From positions 1-34,328 of the IMG/VR virus record IMGVR_UViG_3300011115_000722: a DNA stretch of 34,328 bases; one strand, written 5' to 3'. Made by a program: the position numbers and the translations under genes. Position 1 is the stretch's first letter, and each line of letters opens with the position of its first letter. Shown piece after piece: positions 17,782-24,191 of the stretch. The DNA is from a virus. The notes under the pieces are model-generated. The model did not search any database, had not been told where the DNA came from, and saw only the letters and a list, made by a program, of their open reading frames with translations.

Positions 17782-18075
17782 TTATTCGTAAACAAAAGTC
17801 AATTCCATCGTGCCTGTAGCCAGAACATACAGGCCACGGCTAAATCCAATACCGCTATCAGCCCCACTCAACGGATAGTTCTCGCTGGCTTGTGGGGTCA
17901 GAATGCTGATGATTGTGGGATCTGTTGCTGTTTGCGTTGCAGAGTCATGCACCGTCACGCGAGGCGTGGCTGATGCAGAACTACAAAATATGCCCTTAAG
18001 TTTTCCAAACCCCACCTTAATCGTGGTTTTGTTTGGCACACTGGCAGTTACGCTCAACTGATAATAATGGGCCAT
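17782..18075 (-). CDS. small structural-type protein, paralogue A, 97 aa
   Basis: This protein is a clear paralogue of the one encoded directly upstream (18084-18362). They share IKVGxGKLKGIxCSxASATP near the middle, DSAT, and GLYV...TxxxTFxYE at the end. They are beta-rich, with one Cys each, without membrane spans. The ATG follows AGGAACG. The pair lies between portal and scaffold genes, so a head-associated role is likely (for example decoration or head fibre), but the family is not recognised. Copy A has an insertion of about four residues near position 14. Confidence 0.75.
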   Translation of the reverse strand: MAHYYQLSVTASVPNKTTIKVGFGKLKGIFCSSASATPRVTVHDSATQTATDPTIISILTPQASENYPLSGADSGIGFSRGLYVLATGTMELTFVYE

Positions 18076-18083
18076 GTTCGTTC

Positions 18084-18362
18084 CTATTCGTAAATGAACG
18101 TGACACCAACGGTGCCGCCGATCACTACATACAAACCTTTGCTGAACCAGATTCCACCGTCATCCCCCGTCAGCGAATACATCGTATGTGCGCCGGGTAC
18201 AAATTCCGCAATTATCGTGACCGCGTTTGTAGCCGCAGTTGCCGAGTCATAGACCGCAATCGTCGGCGTGGCAGACGCGGTGCTGCACATGATGCCCTTG
18301 AGTTTACCGGCACCGACCTTGATTTGCGTGGTTGCGCTAATGTTCAGGTAATTTGAGGCCAT
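18084..18362 (-). CDS. small structural-type protein, paralogue B, 92 aa
   Basis: The upstream copy of the tandem pair. It shares IKVGAGKLKGIMCS at 14-27, ASATP, DSAT and the GLYVV...TFIYE ending with the 97-residue neighbour; there are eight bases between the two genes. The ATG follows ATAGGAAAAATC. The tandem duplication with marked divergence suggests that both copies are used, perhaps as two different subunits of one virion feature. The function is unknown. Confidence 0.75.
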   Translation of the reverse strand: MASNYLNISATTQIKVGAGKLKGIMCSTASATPTIAVYDSATAATNAVTIIAEFVPGAHTMYSLTGDDGGIWFSKGLYVVIGGTVGVTFIYE

Positions 18363-18370
18363 GATTTTTC

Positions 18371-18733
18371 CTATGCCAGATATTTGAGTTTGTACAATGT
18401 CCTGGCGTACAACTCAATGATGTTGTCGATGAGTTGCTGCAACGCGCTATCAGACTTATCCACAACGTCATACCGGACGGATTCGATCTCTTGCATCTGA
18501 TCTTCCAGAAACTCAATGATGTTGCCTGTCTTCTTGGCAGACATCAGCGAGATCGGGCCGATCAGACCGTAGCGGCCTTGGTAGGCTTCGGCAAAGTCGT
18601 CCGCAACGCCCACGACACGCTCGTAGAAGATGTTCAGCGCAACGTGCTTAGCGTAGCTGCGGGTATTAAGATGCACAGAATGCGCCACATCCCGCGCTAG
18701 AAACAGCATCCCTAGAAAGTCGTTGCATTTCAT
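18371..18733 (-). CDS. small helical protein, DUF5856-like, 120 aa
   Basis: This is an almost entirely helical protein (FLARDVAHSVHLNTRSYAKHVALNIFYE at about 11-38; IIEFLEDQMQEIESVRYDVVD at about 72-92). The spacing of His and Glu in long helices recalls a ferritin/Dps-like bundle. I associate this pattern with the DUF5856 family seen in phages near the portal, but without a search this is tentative. Its ATGA overlaps the portal stop (18730-18733). Confidence 0.75.
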   Translation of the reverse strand: MKCNDFLGMLFLARDVAHSVHLNTRSYAKHVALNIFYERVVGVADDFAEAYQGRYGLIGPISLMSAKKTGNIIEFLEDQMQEIESVRYDVVDKSDSALQQLIDNIIELYARTLYKLKYLA

Positions 18734-20919
18734 TGCGGCAGTCCTTGCGGTGGCATCTGACCCATGTCAGGCGGCGGCATCATTTCCATAGGCATGGACT
18801 GCTCACGCATCACCGGCATCATCTGGCTTTGCGATTCGATTGCCGCAGCAACCACGCCCATTGCAATATCTTGAATCTGCTCTTCGCTCATCCCGGATTG
18901 CGTTGCAGAGATCCGTTTGGTTTCGGCATCGTAGGCTTTGACCTGGCTATCAAACTCTTTGACCCTAAGCGTTTGGGCTTCCATCGACTGACTGACGTTT
19001 TGCAGCATCGCTTGCATCTGCTGCATCTCTTGAGCCATCCCCTGCATCTGCTGGTTAGCCGCTTGCAGCGCCGGGTCGTCCTCGTTGGACAACAGCTTGG
19101 GATCGATCGTTTTGGCTAACCGTGCGGCCATTTCCTGCGCCCCCGGCCAATCCATGTGCTTGACAAACAAGTCGCCAGCCACGGCCCACAGTTGCGGGTT
19201 GCCTTGCAAGAGCCGCGACATGGCATCCAGCGACTCCTGCCGCTTGGTCATGTAGCTTGGGCCGGTCGTGACCGCAACATCGTACTTGCCGACGTTGGGG
19301 TTGTAGATCTTCTTGATGACGATGCCCGCCTCGTTCTGAATCCGCTTGACCGGCATGGGCTGCATCGGGTCAATCATGGCTTGTTCTGTCTCGCCGTCGA
19401 TGCCAATGATGCGGGCGATGCGCTGCGTGTCGTAGATCTTCGGGATCAGATCAACCAGTTGCCGCGTGGCGTACCGGATCGCCCGCGCCAGGTTGTCAAC
19501 ATAGTGGTAGGTGCCGGTGTCGGACTGCTTCTCGCGGGCCAGAATCGCCCGTCCCGACCGCTCGTTGCTGGTGGCCCCAAGGCTTGAGTCGTACTGCCCG
19601 GTCGACGACTTGATGTCGTCTGCCGCGCCCGCTTTGGCTTGCAACAGGCCGCTTGAGGCCATCGGAGGTTGTGACCGTGCTGGCAACGGCAGCGGCCCGC
19701 CTTGGCCGTCGGTCACATCGGGGTTGACCTCAAGGTAGGGCCAGTTGTTGATGTTGGCCGTCTTCCACTGCTGCTCGTAGCCCTCAAACTGACCGCCGTA
19801 GCCGATAAACGGTGCCTTGGGTGCCAGCGCCAGCATCTCGGCCTCTTGGCTGACCCAGTAGTTGTACATCCGTTGCGCGTCCTTGGCGTTTCGCACCAAA
19901 CCGCTGATGTACATCCGCCGATCTATCTCAAATTCGTTGCCAATCACGCGGATAACGGGGATGTATTTGCCCGCCCAATCGCGCTCTTCCAGCACCTCAA
20001 ACCCGTTGGTTTTGCACCATTTGACCGTGCGAACGTCTACATCGCGGGTCTTTACGGCTTGCAAACCCATCATTTCAATTTGCTTTGCCTCGGGCGAACC
20101 CGCCATTGCGGTCATTCCACCGGCGTACTGGTTCAGTTTCTTGGCTTCGTGCTTGATGTAGAAGTACTCGGCAATCCGCACCGTGTCTTGGTTAATCCAC
20201 GCATTCAGTTGCCCATCGCCCACACCGTAGGCAAGGCTGGACAGGGGCGAGGCATCGGGGAACTCGCGTTCGTATTCTTCGGTGGTCAACTCTTGGTTGA
20301 TGAAGCACCACTCGGCATCCGAGCCGCACGGGTCTTGGATCGTCGGATCCATGTACACGCTGAATGAGTCCCGAATGCGCCCGATCCGCAGATCCTGTTC
20401 AAAGGTGTTGTCGTCGCAGTACTCGGTCAGAATGCGGAAGTACCCCTCGCCAAACGTGACCTGGTTGTCGCAGGCCGTGTCGTAAGCAACATCGGCATCC
20501 GAGATGTACTCAATGTGCCGCACCAGACCGTTGAATATCTCGGCCACCTCAATGTCGGCTTTGTCGTCCGCCGGGATTACTTTGCCGCTGGGCCGGTTCT
20601 GACGCTGGTCGTTGGTGACTTGCAGCACATGCTGCGGCAGCTTGTTGATCGTCAGGCAGGGCCGAGCGTTGATCGTCTGGCCTTGCACCGAACCACGGGT
20701 CGCCAGTACGTCTGCGGGCCATTGCCACTGGTTGTCGGGAGAGGCCGCACGAAAGCGCAGGTCGTCCAGTTCGTCCTCACGCGAGTCCGAGTAGGCCGAA
20801 ATCGCCATTGTAAGGCGCGTCCGCATGGTCGCCAGCATCTCGCCGTTGCCACGGTCGGACTTAGTGCCGCCGCTTGCAACCGCGCCTGCTTCGTTGATGC
20901 CGGTGTCTTGATAGGCCAC
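18730..20919 (-). CDS. portal protein, P22 gp1-like, 729 aa
   Basis: The protein has the length of P22-type portals (P22 gp1 has 725 residues) and characteristic segments: LTINKLPQHVLQVTNDQRQNRP near 88-109, VTFGEGYFRI near 148-157, and FSVYMDPTIQDP near 184-195. The C-terminal 130 residues are a Gln/Met-rich helical barrel-like region. It forms the dodecameric channel through which DNA is packaged and ejected. The start is GTG at 20919, overlapping the TAG of the preceding small gene (TAGTG), and no better ATG lies near. Confidence 0.93.
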   Translation of the reverse strand: MAYQDTGINEAGAVASGGTKSDRGNGEMLATMRTRLTMAISAYSDSREDELDDLRFRAASPDNQWQWPADVLATRGSVQGQTINARPCLTINKLPQHVLQVTNDQRQNRPSGKVIPADDKADIEVAEIFNGLVRHIEYISDADVAYDTACDNQVTFGEGYFRILTEYCDDNTFEQDLRIGRIRDSFSVYMDPTIQDPCGSDAEWCFINQELTTEEYEREFPDASPLSSLAYGVGDGQLNAWINQDTVRIAEYFYIKHEAKKLNQYAGGMTAMAGSPEAKQIEMMGLQAVKTRDVDVRTVKWCKTNGFEVLEERDWAGKYIPVIRVIGNEFEIDRRMYISGLVRNAKDAQRMYNYWVSQEAEMLALAPKAPFIGYGGQFEGYEQQWKTANINNWPYLEVNPDVTDGQGGPLPLPARSQPPMASSGLLQAKAGAADDIKSSTGQYDSSLGATSNERSGRAILAREKQSDTGTYHYVDNLARAIRYATRQLVDLIPKIYDTQRIARIIGIDGETEQAMIDPMQPMPVKRIQNEAGIVIKKIYNPNVGKYDVAVTTGPSYMTKRQESLDAMSRLLQGNPQLWAVAGDLFVKHMDWPGAQEMAARLAKTIDPKLLSNEDDPALQAANQQMQGMAQEMQQMQAMLQNVSQSMEAQTLRVKEFDSQVKAYDAETKRISATQSGMSEEQIQDIAMGVVAAAIESQSQMMPVMREQSMPMEMMPPPDMGQMPPQGLPQ

Positions 20920-21056
20920 TATTTCTTCTTCATCATCGCGCCGCGTTTGACTGCGGATGCAATTGCAACGGCTTGCTTGACCGGTTTGCCCGCAGCGACT
21001 TCTGCCTTGATGTTCTTGCGAAAGGCGGCGGGTGACTTTGACTTGACCAGTGGCAT
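20919..21056 (-). CDS. small basic phage protein, 45 aa
   Basis: The ATG at 21056 opens 45 codons. The protein reads PLVKSKSPAAFRKNIKAEV, then GKPVKQAVAIASAVKR and ends in three lysines. Small Lys/Ala-rich proteins with this KSKS...F..NI..E...GKP.KQAVAIA..V pattern are common in Caudoviricetes, usually near terminase or portal; the function is unknown. It might bind DNA or RNA or be a minor virion component. The stop overlaps the portal GTG. Confidence 0.75.
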   Translation of the reverse strand: MPLVKSKSPAAFRKNIKAEVAAGKPVKQAVAIASAVKRGAMMKKK

Positions 21057-21058
21057 GG

Positions 21059-21217
21059 CTACCTCTTCTTCGCAGTTTTGGCCGACTGCTTGAACGCCTT
21101 CGCAGTCGGTGCGCCGGGTGCGCCGGGCTTACGCATTTTCTCTTTGCTGCCCGCAGCGATGCGGTCGCGCTTGGCGTTGATTGCAGCGTACAAACCGGGG
21201 CTACCAGGCTTCTTCAT
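21059..21217 (-). CDS. small basic phage protein, 52 aa
   Basis: The ATG at 21217 is preferred over the upstream frame because the conserved part begins there (KKPGSPGLYAAINAKRDRIAAGS, then EKMRKPG and PTAKAFKQSAKTAKK). This is a recurrent tiny Lys-rich protein type in phage genomes near portal/terminase, of unknown function. It is followed after two bases by the 45-residue basic protein and preceded by the 84-residue one, with an overlap-type junction (TGACATG). Confidence 0.75.
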   Translation of the reverse strand: MKKPGSPGLYAAINAKRDRIAAGSKEKMRKPGAPGAPTAKAFKQSAKTAKKR

Positions 21218-21218
21218 G

Positions 21219-21473
21219 TCAGCACTTCCATCGTTTGAGAGAGGCTTTTGCACGTTCGCCGTTCTTTGCGTTGGCGGCTACTGCTCCCATACGCGCACAA
21301 AATGACGCTTTGCGCCCTTTGTCGGCTGCGGTCTTGGGGCTGGGCGCGGGGGGCTTCAAGTTGCTGCCGGTGGCCGCGTTGTACTTGGCGCGGCCTTTGG
21401 CGGTCAGGCCAGCGCCCTTGCTCACTGGGAGTTTCTCGCCGCGACCCACCGCTAGAGACACGCTTTTCTTCAC
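21219..21473 (-). CDS. DUF6321-like small basic protein, 84 aa
   Basis: The sequence GAGLTAKGRAKYNAATGSNLKPPAP (about 21-45) followed by KGRKASFCARMG (53-64) and ERAKASLKRWKC at the end matches my memory of the DUF6321 phage family. It is Lys/Arg-rich; two cysteines stand near conserved positions (59 and 84). The start is GTG at 21473. It lies in a row of three basic mini-proteins upstream of the portal; nucleic-acid binding is likely but unproven. Confidence 0.75.
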   Translation of the reverse strand: MKKSVSLAVGRGEKLPVSKGAGLTAKGRAKYNAATGSNLKPPAPSPKTAADKGRKASFCARMGAVAANAKNGERAKASLKRWKC

Positions 21474-21505
21474 AACGCACCCATAAGTTAGTCTGCCTCA
21501 CGCAC

Positions 21506-21534
21506 CTTGTACTCTTGATTTGTCAATCCGTCAA
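21506..21534 (-). promoter_or_regulatory. weak candidate promoter before the small basic genes
   Basis: On the minus strand, TTGACG (21534-21529) and TACAAG (21511-21506) are 17 bases apart, 33 bases before the GTG of the DUF6321-like gene. It lies in the only intergenic gap (21474-21560) between terminase-side and head genes. The -10 has four of six consensus bases. Low confidence. Confidence 0.25.
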
Positions 21535-21560
21535 ATATGTTGCATAAACGGGCGGTTGCA

Positions 21561-22583
21561 TTATTTGGCCCGCAAGAACCGTAAAGGCAAATCGTATGAT
21601 TGTTCTGGCAACAGGTTTCTTCGTTCGGCAGCGGTTAAGTTAGCCCGCGCTTGCGTGGCCCGCGCTTCAGCTTCGCCCATTAACGCTTGGTAATTAGCCA
21701 TTGCTTCTTTGTTTGCTGCTTGGGTTAATTGACTTGGCGGTACGCGAGGATTTTCCGCCATCAACCGAGATAACGCTGCGTTATAAAACTCTCCTGGCAT
21801 GCCACCGGACGCAAATTTTTCTGTATCTTGAACCGCGTGTTGTAACTCATGTAACACAGTAGACCTTGCGCCCTCTTCGGTTTTATTACGCACGGTAAAC
21901 TTATCCCCGCGTGAAGTGCCTGCATTGCTTGACGCAGGCATCCATTCTGGTGATTTTGCAACCTCAATACGCCCCTTGCGGAGTATGTCTGGGTACGCCG
22001 CATATAACTCAGGGTGGTTAAACGCGCCGCCAATAGGCATCTCTTTGACAGACGCATAAGCATTGCTTTTGCTTGGCATAGCGGCGTTAAAGTCCATCCT
22101 AAATCCGGCTGATGCGTCGGGTATTTCTTGCCGCCACATACCATCGGGGGCTTTCCAAGTGCCGGTTTGTTGCCATATTGCTTTTGCATCTACACCGGCT
22201 TTTTCTAGTTCTATTGCTTTAGCGGCTGCGCGGGCATCCCAAGTCTTAGCCGTTTTGCCAATAAACATTCCTAACGAACCAGCGGGTGCAGGCGCGGCCC
22301 TTGACGCGCCAATACCACCACCCATTACGTTCATAGCAAAGTTTGCGGCTTCTTCTTCTGCGCTGAAGTTAGGGTCGCTGCCGCTGTAAGCCCGCCCTGG
22401 TGCGGTTGCCGCGTTGACTGCGCCAGCAATAACACCCGGCAACGCAAAACTTCGTTGGTTCATTACTGAACCCGGCATAGTGTCTTGGAATGGCAAAAAG
22501 GCAGCGCGGCCTTCCATTGACAACGCCTGTTCATACCAAGGCAGTTTGTTCTTGCTTGGGGGCGCAAGTTTGTTATCAGCCAT
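21561..22583 (-). CDS. polyvalent-protein-type zinc metallopeptidase (LPD23-like), 340 aa
   Basis: The C-terminal half has VLHELQHAVQDTEKFASGG with the zinc-binding HELQH at 245-249, and MGEAEARATQARANLT at 302-317, where a Glu could be the third ligand. KAIWQQTGTWKAPDGMWRQEI at 134-154 is typical of the 'large polyvalent protein-associated' domains (LPD23-like), which phages and conjugative elements deliver into or express in the host, probably to cut host defence proteins. The N-terminal 110 residues are Ala/Gly-rich and hydrophobic in part (45-60, 83-95). It sits between the large terminase subunit and the portal cluster, 21 bases after the former, with GGGATGG before the ATG. The target is unknown. 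Confidence 0.78.
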   Translation of the reverse strand: MADNKLAPPSKNKLPWYEQALSMEGRAAFLPFQDTMPGSVMNQRSFALPGVIAGAVNAATAPGRAYSGSDPNFSAEEEAANFAMNVMGGGIGASRAAPAPAGSLGMFIGKTAKTWDARAAAKAIELEKAGVDAKAIWQQTGTWKAPDGMWRQEIPDASAGFRMDFNAAMPSKSNAYASVKEMPIGGAFNHPELYAAYPDILRKGRIEVAKSPEWMPASSNAGTSRGDKFTVRNKTEEGARSTVLHELQHAVQDTEKFASGGMPGEFYNAALSRLMAENPRVPPSQLTQAANKEAMANYQALMGEAEARATQARANLTAAERRNLLPEQSYDLPLRFLRAK

Positions 22584-22604
22584 TGGCTACCATCCCGTTG
22601 CTCA

Positions 22605-24191
22605 TCAATGCCCCATCCAGCCAGTATTAACGTGGTGGTTCTGAGCGTTAACCCGCCGATCCGGTGCCTCAAGCTGCACCTCTTTCGGCCAGACCAATTT
22701 CAAGTTCGGCTCCTCAATCCGCGCAAGGGAGTCAATCATGTCCTTGTGGGCGCTAACAGGGAACGGCAGGTACTCCTGTTCAATGAAGTCATGCACCAGG
22801 TTCCGAGTGTTTTTCTCGTAATCGGTCACATAAAAACTCTTGGGAAAGTAAATCCTCCCCTGCTCAAATATCGGTATCAGCCGCGAGATACGGTCATCCT
22901 TACCCGTCCTGCCCGCAACCTCCATGATGTCAAACCGATACCCCTCGGCCTCCTGCACAGACTTGATGTGCTGAATGTCCGCCATCAATCCGTACTGCTC
23001 CCACCGCACTTGCTTGGGTTTCCACTTGCGATGCAGTTCAATCAACCGAGCCGCACGTTCAGTCAGGTTCAGCCGATCACGCACCATGTCCAGCACATAA
23101 TAGTTTTGGTCTTGACCTAGCCCAATCACCCACATCGCGGTGTAGTCGGAGTCCTTGCGTTTGGAGTTTGCCGAGTCCACCAAGATGTAGTTGTTCGTCT
23201 TGGTCGGCTTTTTGCTGTAATACCGCAACCACTCGCGCTGGAACCCTTGCAACGAATCGGCCTTCGGGTTCAGCAATATCTGCGCTGCATAGGTGTACGG
23301 CCCCATGTCCTTTCGCTTCTGGTGGTGCGTCAGGTCGTCCCACACAATCGACTGGCCGTCCTCAACGCCACCAATCCTGCCCGGATACTCCCGAGCCGTC
23401 AGCGTCCCGCGATCCGTCAGCGTTTTATAGGCATCGTTAAAGTGCCACCGCGTCCCGGCCCCGCGTTTTATCCCCGGCGTTGTCCCAAGGTTATACGAAC
23501 GCTCCATCTCAATCATCACCTTGGCGATCATTTCCGGAGTCGTCACGGAACCCGCAACCACAACGTCATCGTAGTGCAGCACCTTGAAGTGCTTCGATGT
23601 CGGCTGGCCGTCCACCAACCCCCACGCCTCAACGGTCGCCTCATTGGGGTTCGACTTACGCTTTACAATAATCCCGTCGTCCTCCGACCACTTCGCGGCC
23701 TTACGGATATCCTTGCCGTACAGCACATCGGGAAACGCCGCGTGCAGCGTGAGGTTTTCTTCCAACTCGCGCATGATCTGGCGCAAAAACGCTTTCGCAA
23801 TGGGTCGTGTGTGGGAGAAAATCCCGATCGTTATCTCGGGGTCTTTCAAAATGCTCTGAATCGACAACCCGAACGTAATCGTGGAGGACTTCCAGTGTTC
23901 GCGTGACCACAGATCCAGATACCCGTTGGGGTTCGCCTCAACTTCCCGGCACCGATCAAACGCAAACGAGTTATCCACAAACCCCGGTCGCCCGACGCAC
24001 GGCAGCATATCCACGCGATTACACACCCGCACCATCAGATAATACAAATCCGCGCAGACCAGCATCCGCACCACCTGGTTCAGTTTCCCCTGCTGCCGCC
24101 CGATCTCCTCCAACTCATCCCAGTACCGAATCGCGCCCTCGACCGGCAGCGCGTGCAGCATCTTCACCTGCTCTGGAGTCAATTCGCTCAT
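22605..24191 (-). CDS. terminase large subunit
   Basis: The 528-residue protein is a large terminase: an ATPase that pumps DNA plus a nuclease that cuts it. A variant Walker A is at 96-103 (SREHWKSS), Walker B at 204-209 (VLHYDD, with DD rather than the usual DE), and nuclease acidic residues at D339 (YILVDSANS), D348 and near the C-terminus (KDMIDSLARIE). The C-terminal nuclease region 335-505 has the RNase-H-like pattern. The ATG overlaps the stop of the small-subunit gene (ATGA, 24188-24191). Confidence 0.93.
   Translation of the reverse strand: MSELTPEQVKMLHALPVEGAIRYWDELEEIGRQQGKLNQVVRMLVCADLYYLMVRVCNRVDMLPCVGRPGFVDNSFAFDRCREVEANPNGYLDLWSREHWKSSTITFGLSIQSILKDPEITIGIFSHTRPIAKAFLRQIMRELEENLTLHAAFPDVLYGKDIRKAAKWSEDDGIIVKRKSNPNEATVEAWGLVDGQPTSKHFKVLHYDDVVVAGSVTTPEMIAKVMIEMERSYNLGTTPGIKRGAGTRWHFNDAYKTLTDRGTLTAREYPGRIGGVEDGQSIVWDDLTHHQKRKDMGPYTYAAQILLNPKADSLQGFQREWLRYYSKKPTKTNNYILVDSANSKRKDSDYTAMWVIGLGQDQNYYVLDMVRDRLNLTERAARLIELHRKWKPKQVRWEQYGLMADIQHIKSVQEAEGYRFDIMEVAGRTGKDDRISRLIPIFEQGRIYFPKSFYVTDYEKNTRNLVHDFIEQEYLPFPVSAHKDMIDSLARIEEPNLKLVWPKEVQLEAPDRRVNAQNHHVNTGWMGH

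What the first reader, a model, noticed from the sequence alone, without database searches (positions are those of the whole stretch)
21561..22583. Free-standing polyvalent-type metallopeptidase in the packaging/head operon
HELQH and a downstream Glu-rich motif mark a zinc peptidase next to a GTWKAPDGMW segment typical of the LPD domains described in large polyvalent proteins. Those are usually parts of giant proteins carried into the host at infection. Here the domain is alone, between terminase and portal, and may be packaged in the virion or act on a host defence protein.
Basis: partly seen in the sequence, partly recalled or inferred. Interest (0 to 1): 0.6.

Follow-up and report, generated by a model that had tools for sequence, protein, structure and literature searches.

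The report
Swappable enzyme cassette in phage packaging genes
The gene is a real zinc-peptidase gene of a podovirus, and it turns out to be one version of a mix-and-match protein in which a constant front part is joined to any of about ten unrelated back parts, which looks like a delivery tag for enzymes that the phage uses against its host.

Summary
ORF 21561-22583 (-) encodes 340 aa with a full Pfam LPD23 match (E 7.6e-12) and a zincin-type peptidase: HELQH and a third-ligand Glu (GEAEAR) are invariant in 54 homologues. Residues 1-106 are a constant module, absent from Pfam, PHROGs and NCBIfam. In other viral contigs it is fused, with a break exactly after codon 106, to about ten unrelated C-terminal families: LPD23-peptidase, ART-PolyVal ADP-ribosyltransferases, and eight small or single families. 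DNA comparison shows clean cassette exchange between otherwise 75-89% identical neighbours, and a tree of the modules needs 20 changes of type. 74 of 76 loci carry packaging or head genes; in 57 the gene lies within 120 bp of terminase or portal. The module is under stronger purifying selection than the enzyme but has no confident fold. Best explanation: a polymorphic, virion-associated effector with a constant loading/ejection leader and exchangeable enzymes. Swapping is shown; virion delivery and host target are inferred. It is a new variant of polyvalent proteins and MuF-type polymorphic toxins, without MuF and without a cassette-specific immunity gene in the cases examined.

The parts
21561..22583 (-). 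Whole gene: 340-aa modular effector (constant leader plus LPD23-zincin peptidase)
   Evidence: ORF list; Pfam; alignments
22266..22583 (-). Residues 1-106: constant N-terminal module, shared with proteins that have unrelated C-terminal domains; predicted helices at residues 50-67 and 75-87, otherwise low confidence
   Evidence: distribution, alignment; structure predictions; dN/dS 0.04-0.08
22265..22266 (-). Exchange boundary behind codon 106 (Met of GSLGM): DNA similarity to L010 and L039 ends exactly here
21564..22265 (-). Residues 107-340: exchangeable enzymatic cassette (LPD23 plus zincin peptidase)
   Evidence: dN/dS 0.075-0.23
22104..22271 (-). LPD23 domain, residues 105-160
   Evidence: Pfam PF18838 E 7.6e-12
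22014..22016 (-). His190 (NHP motif), at least 90% conserved; possibly the strand-2 His described for phage-type MPTases
   Evidence: PMC5512222
21837..21851 (-). HELQH zinc-binding and catalytic motif, residues 245-249
   Evidence: invariant apart from L/I/V at one position; lies on predicted helix 236-255
21660..21677 (-). GEAEAR, residues 303-308, E304 as probable third zinc ligand
   Evidence: G303, E304, A307, R308 invariant; on predicted helix 302-315
21496..21539 (-). 44-bp relic of the TerL508 gene that follows the effector in relatives
   Evidence: blastn to L002 2727-2770, 84% identity, E 5e-8
22605..24191 (-). Large terminase (phrog_38 type), upstream neighbour; relatives have a different large terminase (phrog_2 type) downstream of the effector
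18730..20919 (-). Portal protein
   Evidence: phrog_156 E 1e-126

Best explanation
The gene encodes a polymorphic phage effector. A constant leader of about 106 aa, unstructured on its own, docks the protein to the virion during head assembly or packaging and carries it into the host with the DNA. The C-terminal cassette is an enzyme that modifies host proteins at the start of infection. In this phage the cassette is an LPD23 plus zincin metallopeptidase that would cleave a host regulatory or defence protein; in relatives it is most often an ADP-ribosyltransferase, or one of eight less understood domains. Cassettes are exchanged by recombination exactly behind codon 106 and before the next gene. 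Shown: the two-part anatomy, conserved catalytic residues, clean and repeated exchange, linkage to terminase and portal genes, purifying selection on both halves. Inferred: late expression with head genes, virion packaging, ejection, enzymatic activity, the target, and conflict with hosts as the driver of exchange.
For: Pfam LPD23 and invariant HExxH plus E304; confident fold of 105-340 with the motif on adjoining helices. Constant module with about ten unrelated C-terminal families: 29 ART, 25 LPD23-peptidase, eight small or single families (ART-PolyVal in 15 of 20). Exact DNA breakpoints at codon 106 with 75-89% identity on both sides in two lineages and in the window. At least 20 changes of C-terminal type on the module tree. 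74 of 76 loci near packaging or head genes, 57 within 120 bp of TerS, TerL or portal. Module dN/dS 0.04-0.08 although it has no confident fold. Module also inside giant polyvalent-like ORFs just before a variable end. Homologous domain in a virion protein of phage H66 by the record's own note. Ejection-protein families encoded in the window.
Against: No direct evidence that any short module protein is in a virion. The H66 evidence concerns a giant protein with a different arrangement. No enzymatic activity or target is known. The exact slot in the packaging cluster varies, so location alone does not prove packaging. Fold comparison with solved zincins is weak (best relevant Z 4.4).
Confidence: 0.62

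Rival explanations
1. Late cytoplasmic effector that is not packaged. It acts in the infected cell (host takeover, exclusion of competing phages, blocking abortive infection), and the module is a localisation or membrane tag. Cassette exchange is still driven by conflict.
For: Same cassette exchange and packaging-gene linkage; the module has hydrophobic Ala/Gly-rich helices that could bind membrane.
Against: Homologous domain in a virion protein of H66 and at the internal-virion-protein position in phage AF; the module also occurs in giant polyvalent-like ORFs, a class thought to be packaged (PMC5512222).
Confidence: 0.22
2. Assembly protease: the peptidase matures head, scaffold or ejection proteins, as prohead proteases do.
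For: Peptidase next to terminase and portal in the head operon; P1 DdrB is processed before packaging (PMC5512222).
Against: Relatives with the same TerL508, portal and neighbouring genes at 85-95% identity carry an ART-like or other cassette in place of the peptidase, so the peptidase is dispensable for assembly.
Confidence: 0.05
3. Packaging accessory: the module binds the terminase or portal and helps DNA packaging, and the C-terminal domains are passengers.
For: Adjacency to TerS, TerL or portal in 57 of 76 loci.
Against: The same module is found with two unrelated large terminases, phrog_38 in the window and phrog_2 in relatives. Catalytic residues of the passengers are strictly conserved.
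Confidence: 0.06
4. Classical polymorphic toxin against competitor bacteria, as proposed for MuF toxins, with an immunity gene that protects the lysogen.
For: Constant N-terminus with diverse C-terminal domains is the hallmark of polymorphic toxins; MuF toxins also use metallopeptidase and ART domains (PMC5576092).
Against: In the TerS-effector-TerL lineage the next gene is TerL at the stop codon, with no room for an immunity gene. The window's 84-aa DUF6321 neighbour is found whatever the cassette. No close form in the bacterial genome collection, so prophage carriage is not supported.
Confidence: 0.05

Closest known systems
Phage-type polyvalent proteins with LPD23 and zincin MPTase (Iyer et al. 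2017, PMC5512222; Pfam PF18838)
   Same: Same LPD23 domain, HExxH plus downstream Glu, conserved His before it; phage late-gene context; same enzyme repertoire (MPTase, ART, GNAT, PBECR) in relatives.
   Different: Short two-part protein; a constant leader not named in that work as far as the searched text shows; one enzyme per protein, exchanged at a fixed point instead of many domains in one chain.
MuF polymorphic toxins of temperate phages (Jamet et al. 2017, PMC5576092)
   Same: Constant N-terminal part plus variable C-terminal enzymes including metallopeptidase and ART; gene near portal and terminase.
   Different: No MuF domain; no cassette-linked immunity gene seen; virus contigs only, no close bacterial genome hit.
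Solo effectors in podovirus head operons: Sulfitobacter phage phiGT1 gene 5 (ART-like, QLB38217) and EBPR podovirus 3 gp3 (LPD23-peptidase, AEI70965)
   Same: Single-enzyme proteins in or next to the head and packaging genes of podoviruses.
   Different: Different N-terminal leaders, not the module described here.
ImmA/IrrE (Peptidase_M78) zincins
   Same: Weak profile match in 4 of 54 homologues and weak structural match to IrrE/PprI, Z 4.4 over 98 residues.
   Different: No significant match for the window protein itself; no HTH repressor partner gene identified.
T4 Alt and P1 Dar/Ddr proteins (virion-packaged enzymes)
   Same: Work-alikes: enzymes packaged in the head and injected (PMC5512222).
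   Different: No sequence relation tested or claimed; no known constant leader with exchangeable cassettes.

Membership tests
LPD23 / polyvalent-protein zincin MPTase | LPD23 profile above Pfam gathering score | tested here: met
   45.3 bits against 27; 52 of 54 homologues match
LPD23 / polyvalent-protein zincin MPTase | HExxH plus a Glu on the next conserved helix | tested here: met
   H245, E246, H249, E304 invariant; on predicted helices 236-255 and 302-315
LPD23 / polyvalent-protein zincin MPTase | Large multi-domain polypeptide | tested here: not met
   340 aa with one enzymatic domain; so member of the domain family, not a large polyvalent protein
MuF polymorphic toxins | MuF domain at the N-terminus | tested here: not met
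   No MuF match at E up to 10 in Pfam for the window protein
MuF polymorphic toxins | Constant N-terminus with diverse C-terminal enzymatic domains | tested here: met
MuF polymorphic toxins | Small immunity ORF directly downstream | tested here: not met
   Next gene is TerL at the stop codon in the TerS-effector-TerL lineage; not checked one by one in all loci
ImmA/IrrE (M78) peptidases | Peptidase_M78 profile match | tested here: inconclusive
   Window protein has no match at E up to 10; 4 of 54 homologues match, best 1.2e-5
ImmA/IrrE (M78) peptidases | Shared fold with IrrE/PprI | tested here: inconclusive
   Z 4.4, rmsd 4.1, 98 residues aligned, within the range of chance arrangements
Virion-packaged, ejected effector | Present in purified virions and delivered to the host | not testable with these tools
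   Only indirect: H66 gp60 record note
Prohead maturation protease | Needed by the head genes it sits with | tested here: not met
   Close relatives with the same head genes lack the peptidase at this place

The most novel reading that the evidence does not exclude
The 106-aa module is a general, portable virion-loading and ejection signal: a so far unnamed leader that recruits any downstream domain to the portal or packaging complex and threads it into the host, so that phages swap enzyme cartridges behind it as hosts change their defences.
Probability: 0.4. Interest if true: 0.82.

Novelty: new variant of a known kind. Interest (0 to 1): 0.62.

Why it matters
Phages are known to inject enzymes, but how cargo is chosen and loaded is poorly understood. 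Here a short conserved leader with a sharp boundary is joined to about ten interchangeable C-terminal domains in one packaging-linked locus. If the leader is the loading signal, the locus is a natural catalogue of phage-injected enzymes, and the role of the leader in delivery becomes directly testable with a reporter fusion in a laboratory phage.

Tried and rejected
(1) Solo status as the oddity: rejected, because short LPD23-peptidases with several other leaders are common. (2) Autoprocessing by the peptidase as the general way to free the effector: not general, since ART-type and other members have no peptidase. (3) Module as a known domain: no match in Pfam, PHROGs or NCBIfam, in 50,697 named phage records, or in the bacterial genome collection with the close form. 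One distant relative was found in Hoeflea, followed by PBECR1 just under its cut-off. (4) Internal start at Met106: the boundary residue is Met in many members but not in all (DLALN forms), so not favoured. (5) Structure search: no significant Foldseek match; sequence searches of PDB gave nothing meaningful. Structural aligner: several zincins (IrrE/PprI, VgrG2b effector domain, SprT, MATCAP, PPEP-3) appear among weak matches, together with unrelated helical proteins. (6) Prior description of the module or of such swapping: none found in the paper searches, which cover open-licence papers only. (7) Whether phiGT1 gene 5 was seen in virions: the paper reports its mass spectrometry in a figure and a supplement that could not be read here.

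Full report
Observation. The ORF at 21561-22583 on the minus strand codes for 340 aa. Pfam gives one significant domain, LPD23, at residues 105-160 with E 7.6e-12 and 45.3 bits against a cut-off of 27. HELQH is at residues 245-249 and the Glu-rich motif is GEAEAR at 303-308. In a 54-sequence alignment H245, E246, Q248, H249, G303, E304, A307 and R308 are invariant and H190 is at least 90% conserved. 52 of 54 members match LPD23, 16 match DUF6782 (putative metallopeptidase) and 4 match Peptidase_M78. AlphaFold2 gives residues 105-340 with block pLDDT mostly 75-98 (lowest block 63), with HELQH on helix 236-255 and E304 on helix 302-315. The upstream gene is a large terminase (phrog_38) and the next large gene downstream a portal (phrog_156, E 1e-126), followed by a head scaffold and a major head protein. 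The window also codes for proteins of ejection families (phrog_598, phrog_2534) and a head-closure protein (phrog_578), so it is a podovirus-type genome.

The solo form is not unusual. Among the best viral relatives most peptidase ORFs are 330-580 aa, with several unrelated leaders. In named Pseudomonas phages the homologous domain lies in giant proteins. In phage H66 it is part of the 3787-aa gp60, whose record note says 'verified by mass spectrometry as part ...', and in phage AF of a 2213-aa protein next to proteins annotated as internal virion proteins. EBPR podovirus 3 has a solo form, gp3.

Residues 1-106 recur in contigs whose protein then continues with a different sequence. L010, L011 and L012 share 91% of residues 1-106 and nothing after that. 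Scans with module alignments and a profile search gave 84 distinct module proteins. BLAST clustering of the parts behind the module gave 29 of ART-PolyVal type, 25 LPD23-peptidases, a cluster of 7 made up mostly of giant ORFs, and eight further small or single families. Pfam ART-PolyVal matches 15 of 20 of the ART-type parts, best E 4e-10; the small ART-like family of L010 matches only weakly (E 0.008). The other families have no named domain.

The exchange is clean at DNA level. L002 (peptidase) and L010 (ART-like) are 85% identical from the upstream gene through the last base of codon 106, show no similarity from there to the stop codon, and are 85% identical again from the next gene on. The pairs L004/L010 and L003/L010 behave alike, as does a second lineage (L009, L030, L027) with breaks within a few codons of that point. 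Where the C-terminal type is the same (L002/L004, L010/L039) homology is unbroken. The window breaks at the same base: homology with L010 runs from 22604 to 22266 and ends at codon 106. On a tree of 62 modules the C-terminal type changes at least 20 times, against a possible minimum of 8, and closely similar modules carry peptidase, ART and a third type (L062-L065, L175). In that clade a C-terminal tail, TRKELLQQEFDKLDK, is also shared by three cassette types, so there the variable core is flanked by constant sequence on both sides. The tree rests on about 100 columns, so single forks are uncertain.

Context. 74 of 76 loci with the short form carry terminase, portal, head or the small head-linked genes within the fetched flank, and in 57 of 76 the gene is within 120 bp of TerS, TerL or portal. 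The exact slot varies: before TerS, between TerS and TerL, between TerL and portal, or after portal. In the window the terminase has been exchanged around the effector. Relatives carry TerL508 (phrog_2) downstream of the effector; the window has a phrog_38 terminase upstream and keeps a 44-bp relic of TerL508 at 21496-21539. Giant ORFs L086-L091 carry the module internally, mostly just before a variable C-terminal part, and in L090 the giant ORF lies between a terminase and a portal-like gene (the portal label of that neighbour is a reading of its sequence and place).

The module itself. Invariant residues in 61 sequences are R26, P31, S39, A53, N57, R64, F73, E78, G90 and G105, with M23, E24, G25 and others nearly so. 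Two AlphaFold2 runs give no confident fold, only helices at 50-67 and 75-87. Yet dN/dS in the module is 0.04-0.08 against 0.075-0.23 in the peptidase. A part that is unfolded alone but strongly conserved is what one expects of a docking or loading signal; this last step is inference. It has no match in Pfam, PHROGs or NCBIfam, in named phages, or in the genome collection. A distant form in a Hoeflea genome is fused to a PBECR1-like nuclease domain (27.3 bits against a cut-off of 27.6).

Mechanism. I propose a polymorphic effector: expressed with the head genes, docked through the module, loaded into the virion, ejected with the DNA, and acting through whichever enzyme is in the cassette. Here the enzyme would be a zinc peptidase acting on a host regulator or defence protein. 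The weak profile and structural likeness to IrrE/ImmA peptidases, which act on repressors (general knowledge), makes a regulatory protein a reasonable first guess. A role as maturation protease is unlikely, because close relatives with the same head genes have no peptidase there. A role as packaging accessory is unlikely, because the same module goes with two unrelated terminases.

Comparison. The enzyme belongs to the LPD23/MPTase family of polyvalent proteins (PMC5512222). The architecture works like the MuF polymorphic toxins of phages, which also use metallopeptidase and ART cassettes (PMC5576092), but the N-terminal part is not MuF and no cassette-linked immunity gene was seen in the loci examined. 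It is a new variant of a known kind. Confidence is high for the swapping, moderate for virion delivery, low for the target.

Noticed in passing
window 20918-21473 (-): Three tiny, very basic ORFs between the effector and the portal (84 aa DUF6321, E 2.9e-17; about 52 aa; about 44 aa). The 84-aa one recurs next to many effector loci, sometimes before and sometimes after the effector; possible DNA-condensing head proteins.
   Followed up: partly
window 21496-21539 and 22584-22604: 44-bp relic of a deleted large terminase gene (TerL508) downstream of the effector, and 21 bp upstream of the effector that match the end of the small terminase of relatives: the packaging genes were replaced around the effector.
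   Followed up: partly
L055, L060, L062-L065, L068, L072, L168 and others, last 15 residues: A constant C-terminal tail TRKELLQQEFDKLDK shared by proteins with unrelated enzymatic cores (ART, peptidase, SLFN type); could be a second recognition signal or only the outer recombination point.
   Followed up: partly
L086-L092, giant ORFs: Giant polyvalent-like ORFs (L090: 2048 aa, GNAT match; L089: 2410 aa, PT-HINT match) carry a diverged module internally; the L090 ORF lies between a terminase and a portal-like gene.
   Followed up: partly
L187 3887-4774 (Hoeflea poritis): Distant form of the leader fused to a PBECR1-like nuclease domain in a bacterial genome, beside a phage-like gene.
   Followed up: no
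window 17782-18075 and 18084-18362 (-): Two neighbouring small paralogues (97 and 92 aa, about 53% identical) between portal and scaffold; some relatives have only one.
   Followed up: no
window 18371-18733 (-): 120-aa DUF5856 protein, named a starvation-inducible regulator in PHROGs, directly after the portal; relatives lie near most effector loci.
   Followed up: no
L029, L030, L032, L033, L047, residues behind the module: A 400-aa C-terminal domain (GAREHPVINFNAQ...) without any Pfam, PHROG or NCBIfam match, in exchange with the peptidase.
   Followed up: no
L063/L077/L168/L175 and L046/L076/L180: Two small unnamed C-terminal families that share the look 'SPSxYIxF ... IRxSxH'; they may be one unknown enzyme class.
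   Followed up: no
L003 3644-4202: A low-complexity stretch whose reading frames give long PAGRQAGRPAGR-like repeats, upstream of the small terminase.
   Followed up: no
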